From: Xylophilus sp. GOD-11R
GTDB taxonomy: Bacteria > Pseudomonadota > Gammaproteobacteria > Burkholderiales > Burkholderiaceae_C
DNA length: 64,000 nucleotides
Assembly (NCBI RefSeq): GCF_033546935.1
Contig: NZ_CP137854.1
Location: 1,116,001 to 1,180,000, forward strand
Direction of reading: 5' to 3'
Shown here: positions 2,776 to 16,386 of the stretch, one piece after another
Position numbering within the stretch: position 1 is the stretch's first letter
Layout: the number at the start of each line of letters is the position of its first letter
Position numbers and translations under genes: made by a program
Notes under the pieces: model-generated
The model's database searches: none
Told to the model about the DNA's origin: nothing
The model's input: only the letters and a program-made list of their open reading frames with translations

Positions 2776-3630
2776 ATGGTGGCTTCGCGTGGGCGTATTT
2801 GGTGGATGACGGGAGCGCTGACCGCACTTTCGGTGCTGTCGGGATGTGCCCCGCAAACACCGCTGCGCGCGCCGCCGGTGGAAGACCGAGGCTTGGGCGC
2901 AGGTTCTTTCGGAATGACCGGAGCATCGGTTCCACCTGCAACCGTGACCCCTCCGAAACCACTGCCGGGCGCAGAAAACGCCGGTAAGCCGGGGTACTAC
3001 ACGGTCAAGCCGGGTGACACGGTGCGAAAGGTCGCGCAGAGCACTGGCCAGACCTGGCAGGACATAGCGCGCTGGAGCGAGTTGACAAATGCCGACCTGA
3101 TCGAGGTCGGCCAAGTACTGCGCGTTGCACCGCCGGTCGCTGTCGTCGCGAGCAGCCCCTCCTCGGCGCCGCCTGCGGCGCCTGCCGTCACCGGCACGCC
3201 GCTCCCGCCTGTCGCGCAACCTGCAACGCCGGCTCGACCATCCCAAGGTGCGGGTGGTGACGAGGAGTTGGCGTTCATCTGGCCGGCGCCCGGGCCTCTC
3301 TTGGCAACGTTCGACGAGGCCAAGAACAAAGGCTACGACATCGGTGGCAAAGCTGGCGATGCGGTCGTGGCTGCAGCTGACGGGCGAGTGGTCTATGCAG
3401 GCGCCGGATTGCGGGGTTACGGCAATCTCATCATCCTCAAGCACAACAACACCTATCTCACAGCTTATGCCCACAACCAGACGCTGCTGGTGAAAGAAGA
3501 TCAGAACGTGCACAAAGGCCAGAAGATTGCCGAGATGGGGTCAAGCGACTCTGATCGGGTCAAGTTGCATTTTGAAATCAGAAGGCAGGGCAAACCGGTC
3601 GATCCCTCGCGATACCTGGCTTCAAGATAG
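2776..3630 (+). CDS. nlpD: NlpD-like lipoprotein: LysM plus degenerate LytM/M23 domain
   Basis: This is a murein hydrolase activator anchored in the outer membrane. The start at 2776 is chosen because an AAAGGA ribosome site lies six bases upstream. The N-terminus has a lipoprotein signal with lipobox LSGC. A LysM domain ([15 protein letters not shown] to GQVLRV) covers about residues 73-117, then a Pro/Ala linker, then an M23 fold. The zinc ligands are eroded: NKGYD stands where HxxxD is expected and KLHFE where HLHFE is expected. As in NlpD/EnvC proteins this predicts amidase activation rather than cutting. rpoS, the usual next gene, does not follow. Confidence 0.93.
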
Positions 3631-3650
3631 TTCTTGGCGCCAAGTCCAAT

Positions 3651-3680
3651 AAAAAAAGAGCCCATTAGGGCTCTTTTTTT
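3651..3680 (+). terminator. Rho-independent terminator after nlpD
   Basis: A perfect 13-bp stem (A-tract plus GAGCCC pairing with GGGCTC plus T-tract) closes over the loop ATTA and ends in seven T. It lies 20 bases after the nlpD stop and ends the surE-pcm-nlpD transcript. The A-tract on the other side would let it work in both directions. Confidence 0.9.
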
Positions 3681-3935
3681 ATTGCCGGCTGCATATCGAT
3701 TGCCCCAGTCCGCAAGTGAAAAATGGTCAAATTTCGTGCGGTAGCTATATTCAATATGCATCCAAACCAAATCTCTATCGGGAGAGATGTTTCATATCGT
3801 GTAAAAAAACACATTTAAATTTATTTGTAAATTTAGTCAGTGTTGACTAACTTGTCGCCTTTATTTGGTTAAATCCGGGCGCGGCCGATCTATTTCTGAT
3901 CGGTCGGTCTTAACCATTCAAATGCGAGAGCTTTC
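3681..3935 (+). promoter_or_regulatory. AT-rich leader with inverted repeats upstream of the DUF11 block
   Basis: This non-coding stretch is visibly AT-richer than the genes to its left. It holds a dyad AAATTTA/TAAATTT (about 3818-3835), a dyad AGTCA-N3-TGACT (3836-3848) and a hairpin GGCCGATC/GATCGGTC with a 7-base loop (3883-3905). A TTGACT hexamer at 3843-3848 could be a -35 box, but no good -10 lies 17 bases away. A short GAGAG sits five bases before the ATG at 3936. These are sequence observations; that the region is a regulated promoter is inference. Confidence 0.4.
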
Positions 3936-4610
3936 ATGGCGTCATTCAATGCGAATAGTCTTAAGGGCAGTGTTCCGCAATTTTTTGCCCGACTCATTCG
4001 TACTGCTCACACAACCCAGTTAACCAAGCGCAGTGCGTTCTCCGTCTTTGGTGCATTGGTTATGGCGCTGTGGTCGGCCGCACCAGTGCACGCACAATCC
4101 AACTCAGCACTTGCGATCGCAAAAACACCCCATACGCAGACAGGGGCTGGTGGTACGGTCAAGGCCTTGCTCACGCAATATAAGGTCGTCAAGGCCAATG
4201 ACGGTACGGAAAAACTGGAAGATGCCAGCCAGATCAAGCCTGGTGACATCATTGAATATCGGGTGACATACACCAATTCTGGCAACGAGCCGGTTTCAGG
4301 CCTGCTTGCTAAATTGCCGATTCCACTCGGCTTGCAATATCAGCCAAAAAGTGCGAAGCCAAGTGGCGATCTAGTCCAGTTTTCGGTAGGAAAAGGCGCG
4401 TTTTCACCAGAACCGCTCATGCGGACTACGGTTGGTAAAAGCGAGCGAGTTCCTTACGCAGAATATCGTGAAATTCAGTGGAGCTTGGGCCGTCTTCCTG
4501 CGCATGGAGAGGCTGCTGTAACTGCTCGGGTTCAAGTTGAAAGCCTGATGCCGCAGGTCCCGGCTGAAAGCGCGGTACCGTCTCCTCCGCCGCTATCTAC
4601 CCGACGCTGA
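3936..4610 (+). CDS. Exported single-DUF11-domain protein
   Basis: The 224-residue product has a long N-terminal region ending in a hydrophobic stretch (about residues 34-50) and an APVHAQ signal peptidase site, so it should be periplasmic or surface exposed. Residues about 85-200 form one DUF11-like Ig fold: the core is IKPGDIIEYRVTYTNSG followed by LPIPLGLQY. The last 20 residues are Pro/Ser-rich. It is the first gene of a three-gene block with two much larger DUF11 proteins downstream. Function is unknown; a minor subunit, cap or chaperone-like partner of the larger proteins is only a guess. Confidence 0.8.
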   Translation: MASFNANSLKGSVPQFFARLIRTAHTTQLTKRSAFSVFGALVMALWSAAPVHAQSNSALAIAKTPHTQTGAGGTVKALLTQYKVVKANDGTEKLEDASQIKPGDIIEYRVTYTNSGNEPVSGLLAKLPIPLGLQYQPKSAKPSGDLVQFSVGKGAFSPEPLMRTTVGKSERVPYAEYREIQWSLGRLPAHGEAAVTARVQVESLMPQVPAESAVPSPPPLSTRR

Positions 4611-4621
4611 TTATATTCGCT

Positions 4622-4640
4622 GCGGCTATTGAGTAGCCGC
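4622..4640 (+). other. Intercistronic hairpin in the DUF11 block
   Basis: A 7-bp stem GCGGCTA/TAGCCGC with a TTGAG loop lies 11 bases after the first DUF11 gene. It is followed by CTCAACCCCTTTTCTT, too poor in T to be a strong terminator. It may attenuate transcription or stabilise the upstream mRNA. Confidence 0.4.
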
Positions 4641-4719
4641 CTCAACCCCTTTTCTTGATTGCAGTCCTTTCGAGGGCGGCATTGCCGTTTCCGCATGTCT
4701 CGATATCCGAGGAAAAACC

Positions 4720-7644
4720 GTGAAGTTAAGAATAAGTAAGTGCAGATCCTGTCCGGCGACGACGTCTTCGAGGCTGGCCTGGAGCCTTTTGACATTTGGA
4801 GTGTTATGGGGTGCATCAACGGCTTGGGCTGCTGCACCGCCTGCGAAAACAAACATCGGTAATACGGCTTCGGCAACATTCACGGACGCGGCCGGACGTT
4901 CGAATGTCGTTACGTCCAATCCGGTCGTCACCGTCGTGCAACAAGTCGGGGCTTTCGCCTTGGACGGCGTTACGGGCGCGAGCAACACCGTCATCAACAC
5001 AAAGTCAGTAACTGCCGGCGGCACTGTCTACTCTCCCCATGTGTTGACGAACACCGGAAATGGGCAAGATAGTTTCAATATCGCGGTCGAAGCGTCCGGT
5101 GGATCACTCGCGCGAATTGAGGTGTTTCCCGATGACGGAAGCGGTAATCCAATGGGCGCCGCCCTCTGTACGTCATCTGGAAGCACATCATGTTCCGTTT
5201 CCACGCCGGTTACGGCGGCGGGAAGCAATGGTGTATTCAAGTTTGTCATCGCCTACACCGTGCCTGGCAGTGCAAGCGGCATCGCAAATCCGTTCGCAAC
5301 CTCGACTGTGACCGCTACGCCGATCACAGCGTCGGCATCGATGTACACCACTGCCACCGCAACCGTTCGCGATCTGGTAAATCTGACAACCGGTCCAGCG
5401 TTTACCGTCACGAAGCGCATAGGCGTGCCATCCGTGGCTGCCGCGGGTGGGGGCGCATGGCCTGCCGCTGCGTCCAATGGCAAAGCCTCCAAATCTTCGA
5501 CTTGTGCGACGACGTGGTCGGTCGGCCTCGTTTCCAACAGTACGTGCCAATACACCGTCTACACACTGACGCTTGCAAATACGGGTGTGGGAACCGGTCG
5601 TTTCGCGCTTGGCGATACGCTTCCCTCCGGCCTGACATACGTCACCGGGTCTGCAGTCTGGAGTAACGCTCCTGGCATCGCGCTTACCGACGCCGCAGCA
5701 GGCGATTCAGCCGGCATCGATTACCGATACAGCGCCGGAAAAATCACTGCTGTGATCGAAGGCGTGCCGTCCAACGCCACGCAAACACTGAGCTTCGTCG
5801 TATTGGTAAACGGCACAGCAACTGCAGGAACCGCCACGACAACCAATGTTGCGTACTACAACCCGGCCGAAGCGGCTCCGACAGCAACGTCGATTTCGCC
5901 AGGTTCGCTCCCCACGCCAACAGGCACCACGCCTTACACGGTCTACGGGTCATATGGTGTTGTGTTGGGTGCGGCGAGTTCGACGAGTGGTTCTGCAGTT
6001 GACGCGGTGGCGGGAACACCCAATGCAACAACAGCAGACAACACCACAGTGGCGTCTGCGACTGCTGGAACTATCGTCAAGTTTGAACAAAGAATCTTCA
6101 ACATTGGCGATACGGTTGATACGGTAAACCTGACGGTCAACGCCGGATCGTTTCCTTCCGGTACCACGTTCTTCTTATTCGGCGCAGATGGGGCAACGCC
6201 GCTCCAAGACACTGGTGCTCAGGATGGCGTGCTTGATACCGGTCCGATTCAGGCTGGAAGCCAAGCCACCGTCGTGGTTGCCGCGTTCTTGCCAGTTGGA
6301 CTCACGGCCGGTTCGGTCAATTACGCGGCCGTATTGACCGGAACATCCAAAGGCGATCCGAGCAAGATCGATGGGACCCGCGACCTGATCACCAGCATAT
6401 CCCGTGGCCTTGTGGACGTGACCAATAGCGCAAGCGGTAACGGGATTTCGGGCACCAGCGCTAACGGCGATAGCGGACCTGGTCCGAGCCCGTCGCCAAC
6501 CACTACCAACACGACGGTCGGCGGGAGCGCCACTGCGTTCAATCTCTACATTTCCAATAACGACTCAACACCGCGCACTTACTCGCTTGCCGCGAGTTCA
6601 TCGACAGTATTCCCTGGAAACCTCCCGTACAACTGGGCTGTCAAGTTCGTTGCGGGGGCCGATGGATCGTGTCTGCCAGCCACGCCCGCAATCACAACGA
6701 CCAGTGCAGTTCCAAGCAACGGTCAAATCGCTGTCACGGCCTGTGTGACGCCGCCGGCCGGGCAGGCGCCGGTGAACGCCGTGAAGATCTATTTCCGAGC
6801 AACGGCTACTGCAGCAACCCCCGATGGCATCTTCGCATCTGATACAAAGACCGACGCTGTCACCGTTACCGCATCGGCCGCTGAACGATATTCAGCCACG
6901 CTGACGGGAAGTAATTCTGGCGAACTCACCAGCCCAGGGACCGTTGTCTATTCGCACATACTCAGCAATATCGGCACGGAAACCTGCGGCCCATATAATT
7001 TGCAAGTGTCGTTTCCGTCCGCAGACGCAGATGCTGGATGGACCTACGCCATCTATCTGGATACTGACAAAAACGGTCAAATCGGCTCTGCAGATCAACT
7101 TGTCACGGGCCAGATTACGACGCCGCTTTTGGCCGGTGCAAGTAATGCCCAATATATCCTGATTCGAATCGGGGCACCGGCAGGTCTTTCGGCTGGAGCT
7201 ACCACAACGGCCACAGTCCGTGCCGTCTTTGCTGCGCCCAATAGTTGCGGATCTCCCTTCGTTACTGATTTGACGACCATTCATAAGGGCACTGTCCGTG
7301 TGTATAAGGCGCAAGCTGTTGACGCCATGTGTGACGGCGTAGCCGACGGCGCGTTTGGCACTGCTGTGCTCAATATTCGCCCAGGAAATTGCATTTACTA
7401 CCATGTCACTGCAATGAACGAGGGTGTTGCCGCGGTTGTTAACTTGACCGTTAAGGACCGAGTGCCGGCATACACCACCCTCAGCACAACGCAGCCGACT
7501 ATTCAATGCTCGGCAGACAACGCTCGTGGTTCCGCCCCCACTTATGCCGCCGCAGGCGCAGAAATTACATGCGGGAATTCAGCAAATGTCATCAATCCGG
7601 GCGGATCAGTAACGCTGGATTACAGCGTTCGCGTAGACCAGTAA
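4720..7644 (+). CDS. Large exported DUF11-repeat protein (974 aa)
   Basis: Translation starts at a GTG with GAGGA about seven bases upstream. The N-terminus is a signal peptide (hydrophobic SLLTFGVLWGAST, cleavage near AWAAAP). The mature protein is Thr/Ser/Ala/Gly-rich and almost entirely beta-type. Repeated units carry the DUF11 hallmark of a YTLTLANTG-like strand followed by DTLPSGLTYV (about residues 225-360); related units recur to the C-terminus, where PGNCIYYHVTAMNEG and VKDRVPAYTTL (about 885-930) form a last DUF11-like module. No sortase motif, anchor or membrane helix is seen after the signal peptide. It looks like a surface filament or adhesin subunit. Base composition is AT-richer than flanking housekeeping genes. 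Confidence 0.85.
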   Translation: MKLRISKCRSCPATTSSRLAWSLLTFGVLWGASTAWAAAPPAKTNIGNTASATFTDAAGRSNVVTSNPVVTVVQQVGAFALDGVTGASNTVINTKSVTAGGTVYSPHVLTNTGNGQDSFNIAVEASGGSLARIEVFPDDGSGNPMGAALCTSSGSTSCSVSTPVTAAGSNGVFKFVIAYTVPGSASGIANPFATSTVTATPITASASMYTTATATVRDLVNLTTGPAFTVTKRIGVPSVAAAGGGAWPAAASNGKASKSSTCATTWSVGLVSNSTCQYTVYTLTLANTGVGTGRFALGDTLPSGLTYVTGSAVWSNAPGIALTDAAAGDSAGIDYRYSAGKITAVIEGVPSNATQTLSFVVLVNGTATAGTATTTNVAYYNPAEAAPTATSISPGSLPTPTGTTPYTVYGSYGVVLGAASSTSGSAVDAVAGTPNATTADNTTVASATAGTIVKFEQRIFNIGDTVDTVNLTVNAGSFPSGTTFFLFGADGATPLQDTGAQDGVLDTGPIQAGSQATVVVAAFLPVGLTAGSVNYAAVLTGTSKGDPSKIDGTRDLITSISRGLVDVTNSASGNGISGTSANGDSGPGPSPSPTTTNTTVGGSATAFNLYISNNDSTPRTYSLAASSSTVFPGNLPYNWAVKFVAGADGSCLPATPAITTTSAVPSNGQIAVTACVTPPAGQAPVNAVKIYFRATATAATPDGIFASDTKTDAVTVTASAAERYSATLTGSNSGELTSPGTVVYSHILSNIGTETCGPYNLQVSFPSADADAGWTYAIYLDTDKNGQIGSADQLVTGQITTPLLAGASNAQYILIRIGAPAGLSAGATTTATVRAVFAAPNSCGSPFVTDLTTIHKGTVRVYKAQAVDAMCDGVADGAFGTAVLNIRPGNCIYYHVTAMNEGVAAVVNLTVKDRVPAYTTLSTTQPTIQCSADNARGSAPTYAAAGAEITCGNSANVINPGGSVTLDYSVRVDQ

Positions 7645-7672
7645 ACGCAACGGCCGCGTGAGGCCATAAACC

Positions 7673-7716
7673 TGGACGCGCCATTGCAGTGGGCGGGCGC
7701 GGTCCATTTTTCTTCT
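7673..7716 (+). terminator. Probable terminator between the two large DUF11 genes
   Basis: TGGACGCGCC pairs with GGCGCGGTCCA (one bulged base) across a short loop and is followed at once by TTTTTCTTCTT. It lies 28 bases after the 974-aa gene, so the 2549-aa gene may depend on read-through or on a promoter in the following 75 bases. Confidence 0.65.
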
Positions 7717-7793
7717 TGTGCTTGGTGAATCGAAGATGCAAGAAAAAAGAAACTTTGTATGTCAAGGCCATTGCGTTCGTCGAGGTAAGTTGA

Positions 7794-10700
7794 GTGATTC
7801 CGTTAGCAATAAAAATTTCAGTCAACTGGCGCAAGCCTCGATGGCCAACAACCGCTGGCCTGACTTCGCTGCTATTTCTGCTTCCCCTCTTTAGCGGAAA
7901 TGGATACGCCGCTCCTGCACTGGCTGGAGCGGCGATGCGAACGATCGCTACCGCGGCATATATTCCCCCGGGGCAATTTCAAAGCGAAAGCGTAATCTCC
8001 AATCCGGTGGATGCGACCGTATCGCCTGTCGAGGCCATGCTTTTGACCAATAGCCAAGAGGTAATTCGACCGCCAGGCTCGGGCGTGCTTTTGAGTCACT
8101 TGCTAACCAACACGGGTAACGTTGCATCAACCTACAGGCTTGACCTGCAGACTGCCGCAGCGAGCTGCAGTAATACCGCTTCGTTGGGAGCGGTAAAATT
8201 AGTGCGCGACACGAACTCGAATGGAGTACAGGACGGCGCGGACACTGTCCTCAATCTAAGTCCGCCGAGTACTATTACCCTTCAACCTGCGGAGAGTACC
8301 GCGCTGCTTGTCATAGCAGAGGTGCCTCGGATCAGCGATGGAATGGCGTGCCTGAGGTTGACAGCCACGTCGACACTGCAAAATATCTCAGCTTCCAATG
8401 TGGATGCGATCACCATCGGCCATGGCGCAGTTATGGTGCTTACTAAATCTGCGTACCACGACGGGCCCGTGATAGCAGGCAAAACCGTCGCACATTTCGA
8501 TATCCAAGCCACTAATATCGGCGGCGAAAATGCTCAGGCCGTAGGACGTTCCGCGCCGGCTTTGCGCCCCGTCATCGTCGATGGATTGCCTAGCGAAATG
8601 CTGCTTCTTCGTGACGTGCTGCCGAGGGGAACACACTATGTGCCGGAAAGTCTGCAGACCTCGACTGCCAATGCGGTTCGCCTATATCGACGTCCTGGAG
8701 ACCCCGAGCTCAGCTATCGAACCGTTGAAGATCGCGATGCAATCGAAGTAGCCATTGGGCTGAATTCTTCAGTCGCGCCAGCGGCATCTATCGCCATGCA
8801 GTTTGATGCGCTTGTGTCGCAGAACGCGCCAACCACCATTGTAAATCTCGGACAAAGTTACTTTTTTGATGGTGCCGCAAATGTCGAATCCGCGTCTAAC
8901 CCGGTGGTACTGGCTGTAGGCAAAGGGTTGATCGGTATTGCAAAAGAATCGAACGTCCCAAGCGTTGATTCTGACCAGCTTGGAAAGCTGACCTCAGTTC
9001 TTAATATTCAATTCAAAATAAAGGTAAAGAATTACAGCGACGGCTGGCTTTACAATGTACAAGCTATCGACGTGATGGAGGGGCTGGAGTCAAATCAATT
9101 CGGGCGCTTCACAGCATCGGCAACTCCTGGCGAAGGTGAATACACCATAGTTCCTGGATCTGTCCGCGTCGTCAGTGGAGAAGGTGTTTCGGCAAATGGC
9201 GAATTTAACGGTACATCTTCCCGCAAAAATTTGTTCTTGAGTGGAGGGAAATTAGCTCCCGACGCGATGGCGGTCGTTCAATTCGATGTCAGGGTGAATA
9301 GTTTGGGTCGTATCGCCGGCATTGAAAACACCGCGACGGCGGTGGCGTCCATCTTGGGTGGCAGCGACGGCAGTTCGGATGTCCAAGACGAATCGGTAGA
9401 TGGTCAAGATCCCGACCCTGATGGGGACGGCAATCCGAATAATAATGCTTCCAGCACACTAGTTCAGACAAAAGTTGCGCATTTGAAAATCAAGAAAAGC
9501 GCATCGCTGCCACGCCGTATCGATCTTGGTGTGTACGAGCTGGATTATGTCATTCGAGTGGAAAATGACGGTTCAATATCGGCACCTAACATTAGAGTTG
9601 TCGATAACCTCAGTTGTACTTTTCCGGGTCAAGAAGCAGGTGGGCATGTTTCCTCTTGGAGTCTGGTTGGTGCCCCAATCATGCGCAATAACATACTGGC
9701 CGGCTCGGCCGGATTTACTGGCCGAGCAAGTTGCAACCAACAGCAAATCGCTAGCAGTGACCCGCGAAATTTTCCGTCCGATCTTTCGCTGATATTGACG
9801 GATGGGAACCGGCCGCTTGCACCGGGACAGGTTGAGGAAGTCGCTTTTACGGTGCGACTGGTAATGAACGACGATGCTGCGCAAGCTCGTACCGCTATTT
9901 CCAACAAGGCATGGGTCGCGTCGCTGAAAGAGAACGTAGTTGCAACCAATCCCACTTTGGTGATTGCCGCGACCGCTGCCACGGCAACCGCCTTGGTGGT
10001 CGATCCGCAAGGCATCGTATATGACGCTGGGTCACGCAAGGCTATTGCAGGAGCATTGGTTACGTACGTGCGCAGGTCATGTCCCCTGGGGCTCGCTGGT
10101 CCCATTGTTCCAGACGAGATTTATGGAGGCGAATCGGGTAACTACGTCTTCAATGAAAACGGTTCAGTTTCGATGACCACTGGTTCGTCAGGCGCATACC
10201 AATTTTTTTTGAAATCGCCCCCCATTTCTTCCGTCTGTAACTATGAAATTTCAGTCAAACCGCCGGCTGGAAGCGCCTATGTCAGCCCGTCGCAACTAAT
10301 TGCGGCTGCACCAGGAACATTTTCGCGTTGTGGTGCCGTTGTCTCTAACGTTAACGCTCCCGCAGAGAAGGATTCCACCGAATATTTCAACAGCGTTGCT
10401 TCTGGGGTTTACAGCACCGGCCGTTTGTGTGAGGTGTTCAACAACCACATTCCCCTGGACCCTGGAAACGTCCGTGGATTGGTGCTTCGCAAGGAGGCCA
10501 GCAAGCGTCAAGTTGAATTAGGTGATTTCCTTGAATATGCGCTGACGCTGATTAATAAAACGGGTTCTCCAATTAACGGGTTTGAGTTTATTGATAAGCT
10601 TCCGATCGGCTTTGCCTATGTTCCTGGAAGCGCAAGTCTTGACGGCCGCATCTCTAATAATCCACTGGGTGGGAGTGGGCCAGATCTGAAATTTGTGCAG

Positions 10701-13700
10701 AGTTCGACGCCATTAAACCCCGATGCTCAGACCATACTGCGCTATCGGGTAAGGGTCGGAGTTGGTGCGGCAAATAATGCTGAGGCGATTAACCGGGCCA
10801 GTGCGCAGGCCGGTCCGATTGCGTCGAATTCGGCCTCGGCGTCGGTCCGTGTTGCGGGAGGCGTTTTATCAGACGAGGCTTTCGCTTTCGGGAAGGTCTA
10901 CCTTGACTGCCGGCGCGATGGGCAACAAGACGACGAGCACGATGTCGGTGTGCCGGGAGTTAGGCTATTTTTGGAGAACGGCACTTTCGTCGTTACGGAT
11001 GGCGAGGGTAAGTGGAGTCTTTACGGGTTGAAGCCTGTGACGCACGTGGTGCGTGTTGACCAGTCAACACTGCCGCGCGGCGCGCGACTGGAAATTCTCG
11101 ACAATCGAAATGCCGGCAATCCTGCGAGCAGGTTCCTGGACCTGGCCAAGGGTGAGTTAAACAAGGCTGATTTCCCTATCGAAAATTGTGACGATCAATC
11201 ACTAGTTGCCGAGGTCAAGGCACGTCGCACAGCAGTAGCCTTGAACGGAACCTTTGATGGAGAAGCACAAATGCGGGCGAGGCTTGATCCAGAGGGGCGG
11301 CGTGTTTCGTCCACTGACTCCAAAGCATTACCTGCAAGCGGACAGTCATCCGGGATAGGCGCTTTTCAAAACACGGGTGCCTTCGCGGCTGCCGCGGTGC
11401 CTCTTATCGCGCTTCCCGTACCGACCGTTAATACTTCTGTCGGTCGATTCGTCGGCGGACTTTCCGGTAATGGCACCTTGGGGATTGGATCCTCTGGCGC
11501 AGGAAGCTTGCCAGGAAGCGTTTTTCCGCCAATGGGCCAAGCTGGTTTGCCAACGGCTTTAGCCCAGACGGGAAATCCCGTCGGTGCGGCTTTGCCCGCA
11601 AACGCCCCTTCCCGCACATCAGCAGCTCTTGATAAGGCGCTCGTCGCGCAGGAGATGAACAAGGGCAAAGCTTCATTGGGAGATCTGCTTTCCACCGTAA
11701 CTGATGCCAGTCTAGGATTTTTGGATCTGCGAGACCACGAAACGTTAACGCAGCAATCGGTGAATGTCAGCGTTAAAGGCCCATTGGGTTCAAATTTGGG
11801 GCTTCGTTTGAATGGAGACCTCGTTGGCGAAAGCCGCATAGGCAAGAAGGCCACGCTTGAGACAAAGAGCGTCGAGGGATGGGAGTATGTTGGCGTGTTG
11901 TTAAAACCGGGCGTCAATACCCTGAATCTTCGCGCGACCGATCAGTTTGGGAACGAGCGCGGTGACGGCGAGACTATTTCGGTAACGGCGCCGGACACCA
12001 TGAGTGCGATTGAACTCAGTATTCCAGCTACTGCACGGGCGGATTTACGTACGCCCATCGTAATCAGAGTCCAGCTGCTCGACTCTTCAGGCCTGCGTGT
12101 AGGTGCGAGGACGCAGTTGACGCTCGAGGCGGACCGCGGTCGCTGGATCGACGAGGATCTGAATCCAAAAGAACCGGGTGTGCAAGTGTTCATGGAGGGC
12201 GGACAAGCTGAATTTCGCATTCTTCCGCCAGCAGAGCCGGGAACCCTCAGGATCCGAGTCAGTGCAGGTCCTTTGGTCAAAGAGGCGATGGTCAGCCTGT
12301 TGGCAGAGCTTCGCCCCATGATTGGCGTGGGTATCGTCGAGGGGGTGCTTGATTTCAGCAAGCGAGGGCATCTGCCCATCGGCGCTGTTCCCGCCGGCGC
12401 TGCTTTCGAAAGCGAACTCAGCAATTTGGGTGGGTCGGATGGCGGCATGCGCCTCGGAGCGCGATCGGCTTTCTTCCTGAAGGGAGCCGTCAAGGGGGAG
12501 TATCTTTTAACGGCGAGTTTTGACTCGGACAAACGTCATAAGGATCGTCTGTTCCGCGACATTCGGCCGGATGATTTCTACCCGATATATGGAGATTCGT
12601 CGGTTCGTGGATTCGACGCACAAAGCACGCAACGGCTGTATGTTCGGGTTGATAAAAATCGGTCTTATCTGTTGTATGGCGATTTTTCAACCACCAGCAG
12701 CAGCGAGGTTCGTAGTTTGAGCCAGACTAATCGCACATTGACTGGGCTGAGGCATGTCTATGACGACAAGGATTTGCGCGCCTCCAGCTATGTGTCGAAT
12801 ACCTCGCAGACGCAGCAGGTCGAAGAGTTTCGTGCATTGGGCACCTCCGGCCCGTACTATCTAAGTGCGTCCGGCGGCGAATTTGTCGACAACAGCGAGC
12901 AAATCGAGATAGTCGTTCGCGATAGGAATCAACCAAATATTGTTCTGCAGCGCACGCCTGTAACACGATTCGTAGATTATACCGTCGAGGCCTTGACGCG
13001 TCGTATTTTGTTCACCCGGCCTATTTCGTCGGTCGATGGCGCGATGAACCCTCAATCTATTCGTGTTACGTACGAAGTTGAGAATGGCGGCGAGAACTTC
13101 GTTGTCGCGGGGACGGACGTGCAGTTCAGGCCTGTCGACAACCTGCAGCTGGGTGTTGTGGTGAATACCGACCGTAACCCTGCAAATCGTCGAGACATGG
13201 CTGCCTTGACGGCGCTCGCACGACTTGGCGAAAGCACCACGCTAGCCGCTGAAATTGTGCGCACTCAATCGGACGAAAAACAGAATGGTGCTGCAGCGCG
13301 GGCCGAAATTCGCTACCAGCATGAAGATGTGGCCGCAGTGGCTCTCGCCTCGAAAACCTCGACAGGCTTTGACAACCCCGGGGCAACTACAAGTGCGGGG
13401 CGTTCGGACTTGAGCGCTCGAATGGAATATCGAGTCGATCCTTCACTTTCAGTGCGCGGTGAAGCGCTCTACAGCAAAGACGCTGCGACGGAGCAGAACC
13501 GAGCGGGCGCTTCGCTCACCGTTCAAAAGAAGGTCAATGAAACATTCACGGTAGAGGGCGGCCTGCGTTACGGGCAGACCAATGCAAGCTTGGGAAGCGT
13601 GTCAGGCTTCGATTACGGCAGCACATCGACCTACAACGGGTCATTCGGCGGAACCCTGGGTGCCGGCAATACGACGGCCTTGGGCGCGTTGGCGACCAAC

Positions 13701-15443
13701 ACTGACAGCCTGAATGAGCACCTCACTACGGTGAGGGCCAGAGTGATCACCAAGGTGCCCGGCATTCAAAATGCCCAGGCCTTTGTCGAAGCTGAACAGA
13801 GCGTCAATGATGGCGATCGTCACAACTTTGCGGTCGGTGCCAATTACGCCTTGACGAACAAGACTCGGGCTTACGGTAGATACGAACTTATTTCCAGCCT
13901 CTATGGGCCATTCGAGGCAGGGGATTCCCGTGTGAACAACACCGGCATCCTGGGTATTGAAAGTGCCTACATGGACGGCGGCCGCATCTATAACGAGTAT
14001 CGGTTGGCCAATTCCATTGATGGCCGCGCAGCGGTTGCGGCTTTGGGCGTTCGTAACACCTATTCTCTAACTCCGAGGATTCGCGTTACCGGTGGGGTTG
14101 AGCACACTCGCAATTTGAGCAGTGCCAGCAACAGCGTCAATAACGGCACCGGGCATGCAAGCCTGTTGGGTGAATCGACCGCGGTGACGGGCGGTGTCGA
14201 ATATTTGCTGGATCAACTCAAGGCAAGCGCCATTTTGGAAGGTCGCAATGGCTCGGATTCCGACACCCTGCTCTTCAGTGGTGGTGTCGCTTATAAGGTG
14301 AACCCGGAAATCAGCTTGCTGGCGCGCTCGGTTTTCAGTGATAGCAAAGGGCAAGGTTCGAGCAGTGGCAACGAACGCCGTCTGCACCGTCACCAGATCG
14401 GGGTCGCTTACCGGCCGGTCGATTCCAATAAGTGGAATGCATTGGCGCGTTACGAGCACAAAGCGGAAGAGATCGTGGGCTCCGGAATTTCTTCTGGCGC
14501 CGCCATAGGCGCCAATTTCAGCGGGGCGACGTTGCCAGGGAAATACCTGACGGACATCTTTTCAACCCACGTCAACTTCAATCCTCAGCGTGGCACGTAC
14601 CTGAGCTCTCGCTATGCAGCGAAGGTGAGTCATGCCGATGACGGGAATCTCGCCAGTCGATATTGGGCGCAGCTGCTGCATGGTCGCATCACCCACGATC
14701 TCGGCCGTGACTGGGATATTGGCCTACAGGCCGGAGTGCTGCGTGGTCATGGTGGCGCCGCTCAGAAGACTTGGGGTGCCGAGGTCGGTTACCAGGTCTA
14801 TCGAGACATCTGGCTCTCAGGTGGCTACAACTTCATCGGCTTGACAGACCGTGATCTGGCGGCGAATGAATACATCAGTGAGGGCCCGTATTTGCGCATG
14901 CGGATGAAGTTTGATGAAACCAGCTTGGGATTTGCCTCGGTGGACAGTTCGGTTGCAGCAGACCCCGTCGCTGGCGTGGCGGTCGTGCCCGAATCTCGGG
15001 TTCGGGATACTGACGCCCCGGCATTGGAAATTTCCAGTCGCCTTGGTCATGGCGTCGAAGCCGATCAGACGGAGTCCACGGTGTTGGATTCCGATTCGAT
15101 TTTCGATGAGGGATCGGCAAATTTGAAAGCGGGAAGTTTGGCAACGCTGGACATCTTTGCCACGCGGGTGGAAGGACTGCCGACCGACGCTGTCTTGCGC
15201 ATCATCGACAAAGATATGGGTCGCCCGTCTGCCAAGTGGGACCTTCAAAAGAACAAGGAGTTGATGGCGGCTCGGGCAAAACGGCTGAAGACCTATTTGG
15301 CGAGTCGGGGGGTCGCGACGCAACGCATACAAACCGATGGTCCGAGCGAAAAGCCGACAGGGCTCGTCAATGGGCGGGAGACGGAGACTTTCTGGGTTCT
15401 TCGGGTACAGGGGGTCGACTCGCAAGTTTCCCAACTGCATTGA
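7794..15443 (+). CDS. Giant DUF11 / SdrD-B-like / beta-barrel / OmpA-like surface protein (2549 aa)
   Basis: A GTG start with GAGGT eight bases upstream gives a signal peptide cleaved near residue 40. DUF11-like modules follow, clearest near residues 563-615 and 898-950. At about 734-760 comes a 'VVDPQGIVYD...AGALVTY' Cna-B-like start, and at about 1031-1095 an SdrD-B-like domain (GVPGVRLFLENG, TDGEGKWSLYGL). Residues about 1510-2400 hold YPIYGDSSVRGFD and YLLYGDF motifs, then long alternating-polarity strands like an outer-membrane barrel. The C-terminus (about 2430-2549) is OmpA-like, with NKELMAARAKRLKTYL and its Arg for peptidoglycan. It could present the DUF11 region outside while tethering to the cell wall. 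Exact role unknown. Confidence 0.88.
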   Translation: MIPLAIKISVNWRKPRWPTTAGLTSLLFLLPLFSGNGYAAPALAGAAMRTIATAAYIPPGQFQSESVISNPVDATVSPVEAMLLTNSQEVIRPPGSGVLLSHLLTNTGNVASTYRLDLQTAAASCSNTASLGAVKLVRDTNSNGVQDGADTVLNLSPPSTITLQPAESTALLVIAEVPRISDGMACLRLTATSTLQNISASNVDAITIGHGAVMVLTKSAYHDGPVIAGKTVAHFDIQATNIGGENAQAVGRSAPALRPVIVDGLPSEMLLLRDVLPRGTHYVPESLQTSTANAVRLYRRPGDPELSYRTVEDRDAIEVAIGLNSSVAPAASIAMQFDALVSQNAPTTIVNLGQSYFFDGAANVESASNPVVLAVGKGLIGIAKESNVPSVDSDQLGKLTSVLNIQFKIKVKNYSDGWLYNVQAIDVMEGLESNQFGRFTASATPGEGEYTIVPGSVRVVSGEGVSANGEFNGTSSRKNLFLSGGKLAPDAMAVVQFDVRVNSLGRIAGIENTATAVASILGGSDGSSDVQDESVDGQDPDPDGDGNPNNNASSTLVQTKVAHLKIKKSASLPRRIDLGVYELDYVIRVENDGSISAPNIRVVDNLSCTFPGQEAGGHVSSWSLVGAPIMRNNILAGSAGFTGRASCNQQQIASSDPRNFPSDLSLILTDGNRPLAPGQVEEVAFTVRLVMNDDAAQARTAISNKAWVASLKENVVATNPTLVIAATAATATALVVDPQGIVYDAGSRKAIAGALVTYVRRSCPLGLAGPIVPDEIYGGESGNYVFNENGSVSMTTGSSGAYQFFLKSPPISSVCNYEISVKPPAGSAYVSPSQLIAAAPGTFSRCGAVVSNVNAPAEKDSTEYFNSVASGVYSTGRLCEVFNNHIPLDPGNVRGLVLRKEASKRQVELGDFLEYALTLINKTGSPINGFEFIDKLPIGFAYVPGSASLDGRISNNPLGGSGPDLKFVQSSTPLNPDAQTILRYRVRVGVGAANNAEAINRASAQAGPIASNSASASVRVAGGVLSDEAFAFGKVYLDCRRDGQQDDEHDVGVPGVRLFLENGTFVVTDGEGKWSLYGLKPVTHVVRVDQSTLPRGARLEILDNRNAGNPASRFLDLAKGELNKADFPIENCDDQSLVAEVKARRTAVALNGTFDGEAQMRARLDPEGRRVSSTDSKALPASGQSSGIGAFQNTGAFAAAAVPLIALPVPTVNTSVGRFVGGLSGNGTLGIGSSGAGSLPGSVFPPMGQAGLPTALAQTGNPVGAALPANAPSRTSAALDKALVAQEMNKGKASLGDLLSTVTDASLGFLDLRDHETLTQQSVNVSVKGPLGSNLGLRLNGDLVGESRIGKKATLETKSVEGWEYVGVLLKPGVNTLNLRATDQFGNERGDGETISVTAPDTMSAIELSIPATARADLRTPIVIRVQLLDSSGLRVGARTQLTLEADRGRWIDEDLNPKEPGVQVFMEGGQAEFRILPPAEPGTLRIRVSAGPLVKEAMVSLLAELRPMIGVGIVEGVLDFSKRGHLPIGAVPAGAAFESELSNLGGSDGGMRLGARSAFFLKGAVKGEYLLTASFDSDKRHKDRLFRDIRPDDFYPIYGDSSVRGFDAQSTQRLYVRVDKNRSYLLYGDFSTTSSSEVRSLSQTNRTLTGLRHVYDDKDLRASSYVSNTSQTQQVEEFRALGTSGPYYLSASGGEFVDNSEQIEIVVRDRNQPNIVLQRTPVTRFVDYTVEALTRRILFTRPISSVDGAMNPQSIRVTYEVENGGENFVVAGTDVQFRPVDNLQLGVVVNTDRNPANRRDMAALTALARLGESTTLAAEIVRTQSDEKQNGAAARAEIRYQHEDVAAVALASKTSTGFDNPGATTSAGRSDLSARMEYRVDPSLSVRGEALYSKDAATEQNRAGASLTVQKKVNETFTVEGGLRYGQTNASLGSVSGFDYGSTSTYNGSFGGTLGAGNTTALGALATNTDSLNEHLTTVRARVITKVPGIQNAQAFVEAEQSVNDGDRHNFAVGANYALTNKTRAYGRYELISSLYGPFEAGDSRVNNTGILGIESAYMDGGRIYNEYRLANSIDGRAAVAALGVRNTYSLTPRIRVTGGVEHTRNLSSASNSVNNGTGHASLLGESTAVTGGVEYLLDQLKASAILEGRNGSDSDTLLFSGGVAYKVNPEISLLARSVFSDSKGQGSSSGNERRLHRHQIGVAYRPVDSNKWNALARYEHKAEEIVGSGISSGAAIGANFSGATLPGKYLTDIFSTHVNFNPQRGTYLSSRYAAKVSHADDGNLASRYWAQLLHGRITHDLGRDWDIGLQAGVLRGHGGAAQKTWGAEVGYQVYRDIWLSGGYNFIGLTDRDLAANEYISEGPYLRMRMKFDETSLGFASVDSSVAADPVAGVAVVPESRVRDTDAPALEISSRLGHGVEADQTESTVLDSDSIFDEGSANLKAGSLATLDIFATRVEGLPTDAVLRIIDKDMGRPSAKWDLQKNKELMAARAKRLKTYLASRGVATQRIQTDGPSEKPTGLVNGRETETFWVLRVQGVDSQVSQLH

Positions 15444-15459
15444 GACGTTGCCCCAAGCC

Positions 15460-16386
15460 TTATGACTGGTTTGCGGCCGCTTTCTCCGACGACATGCGTT
15501 CCCGGATCCACTCCTTGAATGCTGAAAGTGCTGGCGTGTCGCCCCCGTTGGCCGGCGATACCAGGTAATAGGCTCGCTCCACAGGGGGCAATGCCGAACT
15601 GGCTAATACCAACTGGCCGACGTCGATTTCTTCTTGCACCAGCATGCGGGGAACCAGCGCGATGCCCATTCCATGCGCCGCCGCTGCGACTGTCATGGAG
15701 AACAGCTCATAGCGTGGGCCTTCCAGGGCGCCAGGTGCGGTTACGCCCAAGGCGGCGAACCAGCGTTGCCAAGCCGTAGGCCGAGTGCTTTGCTGCAGTA
15801 ATGGCAGGCGAGCCAGACGGGTCGGGTGCAAGGGAAGTTTTTCGTCGGGCAAGAATCGTGGGCTGCATACCGGGACGACGTTTTCGTCCATGAGGTGTTC
15901 AGCCAAGGTCCCTGGCCAGTGGGCCACTTGTTCCGGAGTTCCTGCGAACAGCGCGGCATCGAATCCCGAGTCTTCGAAAATGAATGAACGGGTGCGGGTT
16001 TCGATGTGGACCGTGATGCCGGGATGCAATTGCGCAAGCGCCGGTAGGCGTGGAATAAGCCAGCGGGTGGCAAAGGTCGGGACAGCCGCGAGCGAAATGC
16101 CGCCGCCTCGGCCTCGACCGGTCATCAGATCCAGCGTGTCTTGCTCGAGACCCTGCAAGCTCCTGCTGATCTGGCGGCTGTACTGCAGTCCTGCGGGCGT
16201 CAATGCGACCCCGTGGCGAGTCCTTCGAAATACCGGCAAACCGAGAAACTGTTCGAGCGCTGATATTTGCCGGGAAACCGCGCTTTGCGTCATGGAGAGC
16301 TCCTCAGCTGCCCGTGTGTAACTGCGGTGCCGGGCCGCAGCTTCGAAACAGGCGAGGGCCTGCGTAGAGGGGATTTTTCGGCGCAT
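15460..16386 (-). CDS. gcdR: LysR-family regulator, GcdR-like
   Basis: The 308-aa product has the LysR winged helix-turn-helix at the N-terminus ([33 protein letters not shown]) and a GcvA-type effector domain ([21 protein letters not shown]). It is divergent from the glutaryl-CoA dehydrogenase gene. The same gcdR, gcdH, gcoT arrangement is known for glutarate use in Pseudomonas putida, where GcdR activates the pathway. The symbol rests on this synteny more than on residues. Its 3' end lies 16 bases from the convergent giant DUF11 gene. Confidence 0.85.

What the first reader, a model, noticed from the sequence alone, without database searches (positions are those of the whole stretch)
3936..15443. 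Three-gene exported DUF11 block: candidate undescribed surface-structure system
Sequence: three exported proteins of 224, 974 and 2549 aa, all carrying DUF11-like modules, lie in a row on one strand between terminators, with a repeat-rich leader. One is a small single-domain protein, one a multi-domain repeat protein without an anchor, one a giant with barrel-like and OmpA-like parts. Knowledge: DUF11 modules are Ig-like folds common in surface and filament proteins of unknown function. Inference: the giant could be the outer-membrane base, the 974-aa protein a polymerising or capping adhesin, the 224-aa one a minor subunit. I know of no named system of this make-up.
Basis: partly seen in the sequence, partly recalled or inferred. 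Interest (0 to 1): 0.85.

Follow-up and report, generated by a model that had tools for sequence, protein, structure and literature searches.

The report
Candidate self-locking bacterial surface fibre
Three neighbouring genes belong to an unnamed, widely conserved set of exported proteins that look built to join head-to-tail on the cell surface, perhaps with a self-forming chemical bond, on an outer-membrane base; the gene set is real, the joining mechanism is inferred from sequence only.

Summary
The three genes are real and exactly placed. Relatives keep them in the same order and strand in 62 of 77 named loci (Beta- and Gammaproteobacteria, Balneola relatives, a Limisphaerales MAG); 13 of the other 15 are cut by contig ends. 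The 2549-aa protein (g3) is a passenger fused to a large outer-membrane-type barrel; 11 fetched loci carry passenger and barrel as adjacent separate genes. New here: g2 (974 aa) and large adhesin-like 'tip' proteins (26 of 29 complete ORFs downstream of g3) end in the same ~110-aa DUF11-like domain. It stops just before the segment that carries the isopeptide Asn in complete DUF11 domains. The mature N-terminus of g2, and often of g3, resembles that missing segment. Best reading: a fibre joined by donor-strand complementation, possibly locked by a Lys-Asn isopeptide bond between chains: g3 base, g2 shaft or adaptor, a tip encoded elsewhere in this chromosome, g1 a non-reactive acceptor (chaperone or cap). 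Conservation and modularity are shown; complementation, covalency and roles are inferred. Nine paper searches found no such system. In this window g3 itself has Thr where most relatives have the Asn.

The parts
3648..3681 (+). Strong intrinsic terminator after the upstream M23/LysM gene; marks the left edge of the block
   Evidence: RNA fold -26.4 kcal/mol, z -8.15, 0 of 200 shuffles as good for window 3640-3690
3936..4610 (+). g1: exported protein of 224 aa, one DUF11-like domain; candidate non-reactive acceptor (chaperone or cap)
   Evidence: TIGR01451 33.8 bits; family alignment A2 of 19; Leu/Met/Ile at the isopeptide-Asp position in 63 of 63 rows
4720..7644 (+). g2: exported protein of 974 aa, chain of Ig-like domains; candidate shaft or adaptor subunit
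4846..4944 (+). g2 residues 43-75: candidate donor strand at the mature N-terminus, with Asn48 (4861-4863)
   Evidence: Asn in 62 of 62 rows that have the position; joined after the C-terminal domain it raises the DUF11 profile score in 61 of 62 proteins above all own shuffles
7282..7641 (+). g2 residues 855-974: C-terminal DUF11-like domain (CTD), candidate acceptor, Lys863 and Asp913, no Asn segment
   Evidence: K863 62/63, D913 61/63; shared by downstream tips and g2 paralogues at their C-terminus
7794..15443 (+). g3: exported protein of 2549 aa, stalk plus barrel; candidate outer-membrane base
7920..8027 (+). g3 residues 43-78: donor-like N-terminal segment; Thr here at the Asn position
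   Evidence: Asn in 49 of 62 relatives by pattern reading; stricter scan: 38 of 63 beat all shuffles, 30 of those 38 have Asn; the window's own g3 does not beat them
8427..8948 (+). g3 residues 212-385: complete DUF11-type domain, K218 / D274 / N351 invariant in 18 sequences; used as yardstick
10461..11243 (+). g3 residues 890-1150 ('mod'): DUF11 (K900/D934/N1000) plus SdrD_B; the module that ends the passengers of split systems
   Evidence: PF01345 32.2 bits, SdrD_B 26.9 bits (below its cut-off); ends 19-93 aa before the C-terminus of 11 split passengers
11991..12293 (+). g3 residues 1400-1500: Ig-like domain before the barrel
12306..14921 (+). g3 residues 1505-2376: large beta-barrel region
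   Evidence: AF2 model of 1380-2410; the listed matches to this part are membrane beta-barrels of many kinds
15039..15356 (+). g3 residues 2416-2521: weak OmpA-like C-terminal segment
   Evidence: NCBIfam OmpA-type models, best E 5.3e-6, below cut-offs; a separate OmpA-domain gene in the same place in 7 of 8 loci tested

Best explanation
g1-g2-g3 encode an outer-membrane-anchored surface fibre whose parts are joined end to end by completing a split DUF11 (CLIPPER) domain. Seen in sequence: g2 and the tips end in a DUF11-like domain that stops just before its last segment, and g2 begins, right after the signal peptide, with a segment that resembles exactly that missing part. Inferred: in the assembled fibre the N-terminal strand of one subunit fills the groove in the C-terminal domain of the next. 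Because Lys863 and Asp913 lie in the acceptor and Asn48 in the donor, the contact could close into a Lys-Asn isopeptide bond between chains, a natural counterpart of the engineered tag/catcher pairs. Roles: g3 (donor only, plus barrel) is the base; g2 (donor and acceptor) is shaft or adaptor; tip proteins (acceptor only, varied N-terminal heads) sit at the far end, with a candidate encoded elsewhere in this chromosome; g1 (acceptor-like, no catalytic Asp) binds the donor strand reversibly as chaperone or cap. The barrel may also export the chains; that step is the least supported.
For: Synteny in 62 of 77 loci. The CTD profile, built from g2 alone, also hits the C-terminus of 26 of 29 complete ORFs downstream of g3; all 62 syntenic g2 have it, by construction. 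The 19 tip candidates listed have no donor-like start (best score -5.4; shuffle maximum 1.3). On two complete DUF11 profiles, CTDs whose alignment reaches their end stop at position 97 of 133 (7 of 32; Asn at 109) or 130-131 of 174 (5 of 32; Asn at 140); g2 N-termini start at 130-139 of the same 174 (61 of 61, of which 60 of 62 loci had been picked by a motif that includes the Asn). Without motif selection, joining the halves in the right order raises the score by a mean of 12.3 bits (shuffled strand 1.0, wrong order 2.2); 61 of 62 beat all 10 own shuffles. Asn48 62/62, Lys863 62/63, Asp913 61/63; L053 has lost both Lys and Asp. g1: no Asp in 63 of 63. The own genome holds one head, 89% identical over 643 aa, on a CTD tip and on a split-system passenger. 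In 150 genomes, a non-g2 match to the CTD of 50 bits or more is found in 7 of 7 genomes with the block and 1 of 143 without (at most 29 candidates scored per genome).
Against: No coordinates were available, so I could not see whether the donor strand sits in the CTD groove. In the monomer model the donor segment is ordered (pLDDT 82-89 in the blocks of model residues 11-40), so it may simply pack on its own first domain. With the second DUF11 profile (g3 892-1024) the joining gain is small (mean 0.9 bits; 6 of 62 beat all own shuffles), although one alignment spans both halves in 34 of 62 real against 63 of 620 shuffled joins; with the first profile a single alignment over most of both halves is rare too (7 of 62 against 19 of 620). 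For 27 of 32 CTDs the best alignment to the first profile lies elsewhere, not at the C-terminal end; on the second, two low-scoring alternatives pass position 97. One of 300 shuffled N-termini scored 16.3, within the real range 4.8-17.2. The window's own g3 has Thr at the donor position and scores below the shuffle maximum. Conserved residues in related proteins are no proof of a bond. The Lys register in g1 is uncertain.
Confidence: 0.5

Rival explanations
1. The shared C-terminal domain is a sorting signal, not a fibre joint: g2 and the tips are exported or anchored one by one through recognition of the CTD by the g3 barrel, as C-terminal Ig-like domains are used in the type 9 system. The N-terminal segment is just the first strand of the first domain.
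For: CTD at the C-terminus of very different proteins; g3 is a large barrel, and 11 split systems pair a barrel with a passenger carrying a conserved C-terminal module; SprA chains, one from a substrate-CTD complex, are among the Foldseek matches; the donor segment is ordered in the monomer model.
Against: Does not explain why the CTD stops where a complete DUF11 would continue, why g2 starts with what looks like the missing part, or why Asn48 is kept in 62 of 62. g3, which bears no CTD at its end, often has the donor-like start.
Confidence: 0.27
2. Donor-strand joining is real but not covalent; Lys, Asp and Asn are inherited from complete DUF11 ancestors and do not react between chains.
For: [quoted passage not shown] 13 of 62 g3 relatives by pattern reading, and the window's own g3, lack the Asn; g1 lacks the Asp.
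Against: Lys and Asp persist in 62 and 61 of 63 g2 rows although that domain has no Asn segment of its own.
Confidence: 0.15
3. The three proteins are independent fibrillar adhesins or a surface coat that share DUF11 modules and are merely co-transcribed.
For: DUF11 is common in fibrillar adhesins (PMC12617251 passages); giant DUF11 hooks are built from one protein (PMC13319060 passages).
Against: Fixed order and complementary termini across distant groups; the same head on two C-terminal devices.
Confidence: 0.08

Closest known systems
Chaperone-usher pili (FimA/FimC/FimD, PapC; general features recalled)
CLIPPER (DUF11) fibrillar adhesins, e.g. Acinetobacter silvestris B9T28_05395 (PMC12617251, abstract and passages)
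   Same: DUF11 modules with Lys-Asp-Asn triads; in that adhesin an OmpA-like anchor; its solved domain 9IFR is the best, though not significant, PDB match of the g3 DUF11 (E 0.25).
   Different: There the bond is inside one domain of a monomeric adhesin; here the domain appears split between chains. The words 'donor strand', 'split' and 'barrel' do not occur in its main text.
Archaeal threads of Sulfolobus acidocaldarius, Saci_0406 (PMC9715654, passages)
   Same: Head-to-tail filament with donor-strand complementation plus a proposed inter-subunit isopeptide bond; a putative cap protein lacking the acceptor site.
   Different: There the bond joins an Asn side chain to the N-terminal alpha-amino group two subunits away; glycosylated archaeal subunits, no outer membrane; 'DUF11' does not occur in its text.
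Type 9 secretion (SprA, C-terminal Ig-like signal domains; recalled)
   Same: Very large barrel and conserved C-terminal Ig-like domain on varied cargo.
   Different: No SprA family among Pfam matches of g3 at E<=1; the cargo domain is DUF11-like and truncated.
DUF11 grappling hooks GhpA / GhlA (PMC13319060, passages)
   Same: Surface filaments; GhlA is built of 49 DUF11 domains.
   Different: One giant protein per filament; no three-gene set or split domain in the passages seen.
Sortase-built Gram-positive pili (RrgB, BcpA, EbpB)
   Different: I saw no LPXTG-type sorting tail at the ends of g1-g3 (by eye); the joint proposed here needs no enzyme.

Membership tests
Chaperone-usher pilus systems | Usher family barrel by sequence profile | tested here: not met
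   No usher family among Pfam matches of g3 at E<=1
Chaperone-usher pilus systems | 24-strand usher barrel fold with plug | tested here: inconclusive
   FimD is the best VIA-align match but tied with LamB/maltoporin chains; pTM 0.61
Chaperone-usher pilus systems | Two-domain periplasmic chaperone of the PapD family in the cluster | tested here: not met
   g1 matches only DUF11-type and marginal families; the 10 neighbouring ORFs scanned show EAL/GGDEF, PCMT, M23/LysM, LysR, acyl-CoA dehydrogenase, CoA-transferase, BrkB or nothing. The rest of the genome was not searched for chaperones
Chaperone-usher pilus systems | Donor-strand complementation between subunits | tested here: inconclusive
   Complementary split of a DUF11 domain by sequence; no complex structure
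Type 9 secretion | SprA family protein | tested here: not met
   No SprA family among Pfam matches of g3 at E<=1; SprA chains are among general barrel matches
Type 9 secretion | Known type 9 C-terminal sorting domain on cargo | tested here: not met
   Pfam scans of g2 and of 7 downstream tip candidates list no such domain
CLIPPER/DUF11 proteins | PF01345 or TIGR01451 above cut-off | tested here: met
   g3 both, g1 TIGR01451 only; g2 just below (23.3 against 24)
CLIPPER/DUF11 proteins | Lys-Asp-Asn isopeptide triad within the domain | tested here: met
   g3 K900/D934 (90% or more) and N1000 (invariant); K218/D274/N351 and K568/D604/N704 invariant in 18 sequences; the bond itself was not tested
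Classical autotransporters (type 5a) | Autotransporter barrel family | tested here: not met
   No such family among Pfam matches of g3 at E<=1
Gram-positive sortase pili | LPXTG-type sorting signal | tested here: not met
   None seen by eye at the C-termini of g1-g3

The most novel reading that the evidence does not exclude
Bacteria with an outer membrane build surface fibres by a natural, enzyme-free tag-and-catcher reaction: an isopeptide-forming DUF11 domain is split between subunits, donor strand with Asn at the N-terminus and catcher with Lys and Asp at the C-terminus, so that base, shaft and interchangeable tips click together covalently, with g1 as a conserved non-reactive catcher that guards the donor strands. 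The set spans Proteobacteria, Balneola relatives and a Limisphaerales MAG and is unnamed.
Probability: 0.4. Interest if true: 0.92.

Novelty: new variant of a known kind. Interest (0 to 1): 0.74.

Why it matters
If true, it adds a widespread pilus-like system of Gram-negative bacteria with a joining chemistry best known from engineered tag/catcher pairs, explains a large set of 'DUF11' and 'OmpA family' giants, and gives a rule (missing last segment at the C-terminus, matching segment at the N-terminus) to recognise bases, shafts and tips from sequence. It could also supply many natural tag/catcher pairs.

Tried and rejected
Tandem-repeat search of the block found none. Promoter-like and terminator-like scans gave no more sites than shuffles; the strong upstream hairpin was missed by that scan and seen by folding. 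A loose regular expression for the donor motif was out of register and its counts are not used; it was replaced by a masked profile scan and profile-HMM mapping and, for the g3 Asn count, by a tighter pattern whose register may be off in a few sequences. Type 11 secretion was considered because of a paper hit, but the passages there concern mostly DUF1194. The joining test with the second DUF11 profile was weak and is reported as such. Structure libraries: the barrel matches many outer-membrane barrels without a clear winner; 9ifr is not among the 50 rows shown for g2, which tells nothing.

Paper searches that found nothing on this make-up: no papers; listings seen; passages of five papers read. 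The library holds only open-licence PMC papers.

Selection limits: the 77 loci were fetched with an alignment of fused g3 proteins and are rich in Variovorax and Acinetobacter; split systems were fetched because both parts had matched, so their counts are not frequencies. The 61 N-termini were picked by a motif that includes the Asn (60 of 62 loci passed); one search used alignment columns instead. Divergent g1-like ORFs near divergent barrels (G081, G105) were not followed. Whether the CTD matches of G037 and G148 outside the block lie at the end of their ORFs was not checked.
Full report
THE OBSERVATION. Three ORFs on the + strand are where the finding puts them: g1 3936-4610 (224 aa), g2 4720-7644 (974 aa), g3 7794-15443 (2549 aa). 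Upstream lie EAL/GGDEF, PCMT and M23/LysM genes; downstream a convergent LysR gene, then acyl-CoA dehydrogenase and CoA-transferase genes. The upstream terminator is very strong (z -8.15); the hairpins inside the block are not significant. No tandem repeats were reported. DUF11 assignments are above cut-off for g3, above cut-off for g1 by TIGR01451 only, and just below for g2. The window lies at 1,116,001-1,180,000 of a single 5,127,500-base contig; the named relatives of g3 are largely betaproteobacterial, and the genus was not determined.

A CONSERVED GENE SET. At least 772 proteins match the g3 C-terminal part (only 7987 candidates were scored). An alignment of g3 with 17 of the listed relatives (A1) brought 77 named loci. 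Of these, 62 carry g1, g2 and g3 in this order on one strand, with gaps between first-start ORFs from -163 to 308 nt in all but one (L071, broken frames). Of the 15 others, 13 begin at a contig end inside g3 or less than 2 kb upstream of it (L041, L043, L054, L058, L065, L070, L076, L084, L086, L097, L100, L107, L115); five of these still show a partial g2 (L043, L084, L097, L100, L107). L061 and L072 had room and lack the set as whole genes (L061 keeps an 82-aa piece that matches the g2 end; the L072 match is a g3 fragment). Organisms with the full set include Variovorax, Polaromonas, Pseudacidovorax, Curvibacter, Lysobacter, Acinetobacter, Alkanindiges, Agitococcus, Balneola, Gracilimonas and a Limisphaerales MAG. 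In an even sample of 150 genomes of the order, g1 matched in 11, g2 in 8 and g3 in 56, many of the last only through the OmpA-like end. All three occur in 7: adjacent in G000, G037, G051, G057, G091 and G104, on two contigs in G148.

G3 IS A FUSION. The window's own chromosome holds a second, different locus: a barrel-only protein of 1066 aa overlapping by 4 nt a 3271-aa passenger. The passenger ends with the same DUF11+SdrD_B module that lies in the middle of g3 (residues 890-1150). I fetched 18 further regions. With this one, 19 were examined: 11 are split in this way, the module ending 19-93 aa before the passenger's C-terminus; 7 hold a fused g3 beside g2 (one, L157, with g3 in three frames); 1 is a divergent relative (L159). 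They were chosen because parts had matched, so the numbers are not frequencies. The fusion argues that passenger, module and barrel act together.

A SHARED C-TERMINAL DOMAIN. A profile of the last ~120 aa of g2 finds the same domain at the C-terminus (mostly 0-2 aa from the stop) of tandem g2 paralogues upstream of the block in Acinetobacter and of long variable proteins; all 62 syntenic g2 have it, by construction of the profile. Of 29 complete ORFs of at least 500 aa that start close to the end of g3 in the 77 loci, 26 end with it (within 0-5 aa, one at 19); the exceptions are L113 (looks alike by eye, below threshold), L061 and L072. Seven of these proteins were scanned and carry SpaA_3, SpaA_4, DUF11, Big_1 or SdrD_B matches, and one more carries DUF7933 repeats, as expected of fibrillar adhesins. 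In 7 of 8 loci tested, mostly Gammaproteobacteria, a small ORF directly after g3 is an OmpA-domain protein. In this window nothing follows g3 on its strand, but the genome has one CTD protein elsewhere: 1144 aa, G000:C1:4468468-4471902. Its head is 89% identical over 643 aa (92.8% in DNA over 1855 positions) to the head of the split-system passenger, which ends with the other module: one head, two C-terminal devices. In the 150-genome sample a CTD match of 50 bits or more occurs in 8 genomes; besides g2 itself, such matches are present in 7 of 7 genomes with the block and in 1 of 143 without (G151). At most 29 candidates per genome were scored.

THE DOMAIN IS TRUNCATED WHERE THE N-TERMINUS BEGINS. 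In complete DUF11 domains of g3 the Lys, Asp and Asn of the isopeptide triad are conserved. The solved DUF11 9IFR is the best PDB match of one of them, not significant (E 0.25); the Asn aligned with N1000 is, within one residue, the paper's Asn806 if the chain carries two extra residues. The C-terminal domains have Lys (31 of 32) and Asp (30 of 32) but end before the Asn segment. On the g3 892-1024 profile (133 positions, Asn at 109) seven of 32 align up to position 97, 1-5 aa before their last residue; two low-scoring alternatives pass it (L062 to 121, L113 99-108). On the g3 212-385 profile (174 positions, Asn at 140) five of 32, the window's included, align at their end and stop at 130-131; the best alignments of the other 27 lie elsewhere. 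On that profile 61 of 61 g2 N-termini start at 130-139 and end at 160-169; these were picked by a motif that includes the Asn (60 of 62 loci pass, plus the window). Scores are low because the pieces are short: 4.8-17.2 bits, against 300 shuffles with a maximum of 16.3 and a second best of 5.6. Without motif selection, when the two pieces of each g2 are joined in the order acceptor-donor, the score rises by a mean of 12.3 bits (shuffled donors 1.0, maximum 12.7; reverse order 2.2), and 61 of 62 beat all their own 10 shuffles; for the window's g2 one alignment runs from 103 to 166. Alignments over most of both halves are few (7 of 62 against 19 of 620). With the g3 892-1024 profile the gain is small (0.9 bits; 6 of 62), but one alignment spans both halves in 34 of 62 against 63 of 620. 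Asn48 is present in 62 of 62 g2 rows with the position, Lys863 in 62 of 63, Asp913 in 61 of 63; L053 has lost both Lys and Asp, L113 the Asp. g3 has a similar start, with Asn in 49 of 62 by pattern reading; by the stricter scan 38 of 63 sequences beat every shuffle and 30 of these have Asn, while the window's g3 has Thr and scores -3.3 against a shuffle maximum of 1.3. The 19 tip candidates listed show no such start (best -5.4).

G1. g1 is a single DUF11-like domain that also lacks the last segment (alignment A2). At the Asp position it has Leu, Met or Ile in 63 of 63, and at the aligned Lys position Leu in 63 of 63, the latter in a register that is less certain. A conserved acceptor that cannot react suits a chaperone or cap; this is inference.

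READING. Donor-strand complementation with a possible intermolecular isopeptide lock explains the complementary termini, the conserved residues on separate ends, the tips with acceptor only, the base with donor only, and the non-reactive g1. The nearest precedents seen are archaeal threads (PMC9715654, passages), DUF11/CLIPPER adhesins (PMC12617251, abstract and passages) and chaperone-usher pili. By the profile tests made it is not a member of the chaperone-usher, type 9 or autotransporter families. Probabilities: conserved gene set about 0.97; donor-strand joining about 0.6; covalent joining between chains about 0.4; export through the g3 barrel about 0.35.

Noticed in passing
L142 (G000:C1:4019000-4038500), 2961-15973: Second, split system in the same chromosome: barrel-only gene overlapping by 4 nt a 3271-aa DUF11 passenger with the g3 module at its end.
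   Followed up: yes
L165 5518-7368 against L142 10767-12619: A 1.85-kb head sequence is shared at 92.8% DNA identity between two adhesin genes about 440 kb apart with different C-terminal modules, suggesting recombination of heads.
   Followed up: partly
L157 5047-12445 (same-genus genome G003): The orthologous g3 lies in three overlapping reading frames, so it is broken or mis-sequenced there; g1 and g2 are single open frames.
   Followed up: no
L080, L093, L103 and other Acinetobacter loci, first 9 kb: Tandem g2 paralogues (about 885-900 aa) and, in some, a tip-like protein ending in the C-terminal domain lie upstream of g1; some paralogues score well for the donor motif and others do not.
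   Followed up: partly
L166 5943-8252 (G151): An orphan 769-aa protein with a clear C-terminal domain in a genome where no g2 or g3 was matched; possibly a remnant.
   Followed up: partly
L053 6675-9728: A g2 that has lost both the Lys and the Asp of the C-terminal domain while keeping the N-terminal Asn.
   Followed up: no
L070 977-5413: At a contig end, one ORF matches both the g1 profile and a g3 piece; a rearrangement or assembly error.
   Followed up: no
window 4620-4645: GC-rich hairpin between g1 and g2, not significant against shuffles (z -1.05); could still tune relative expression.
   Followed up: partly
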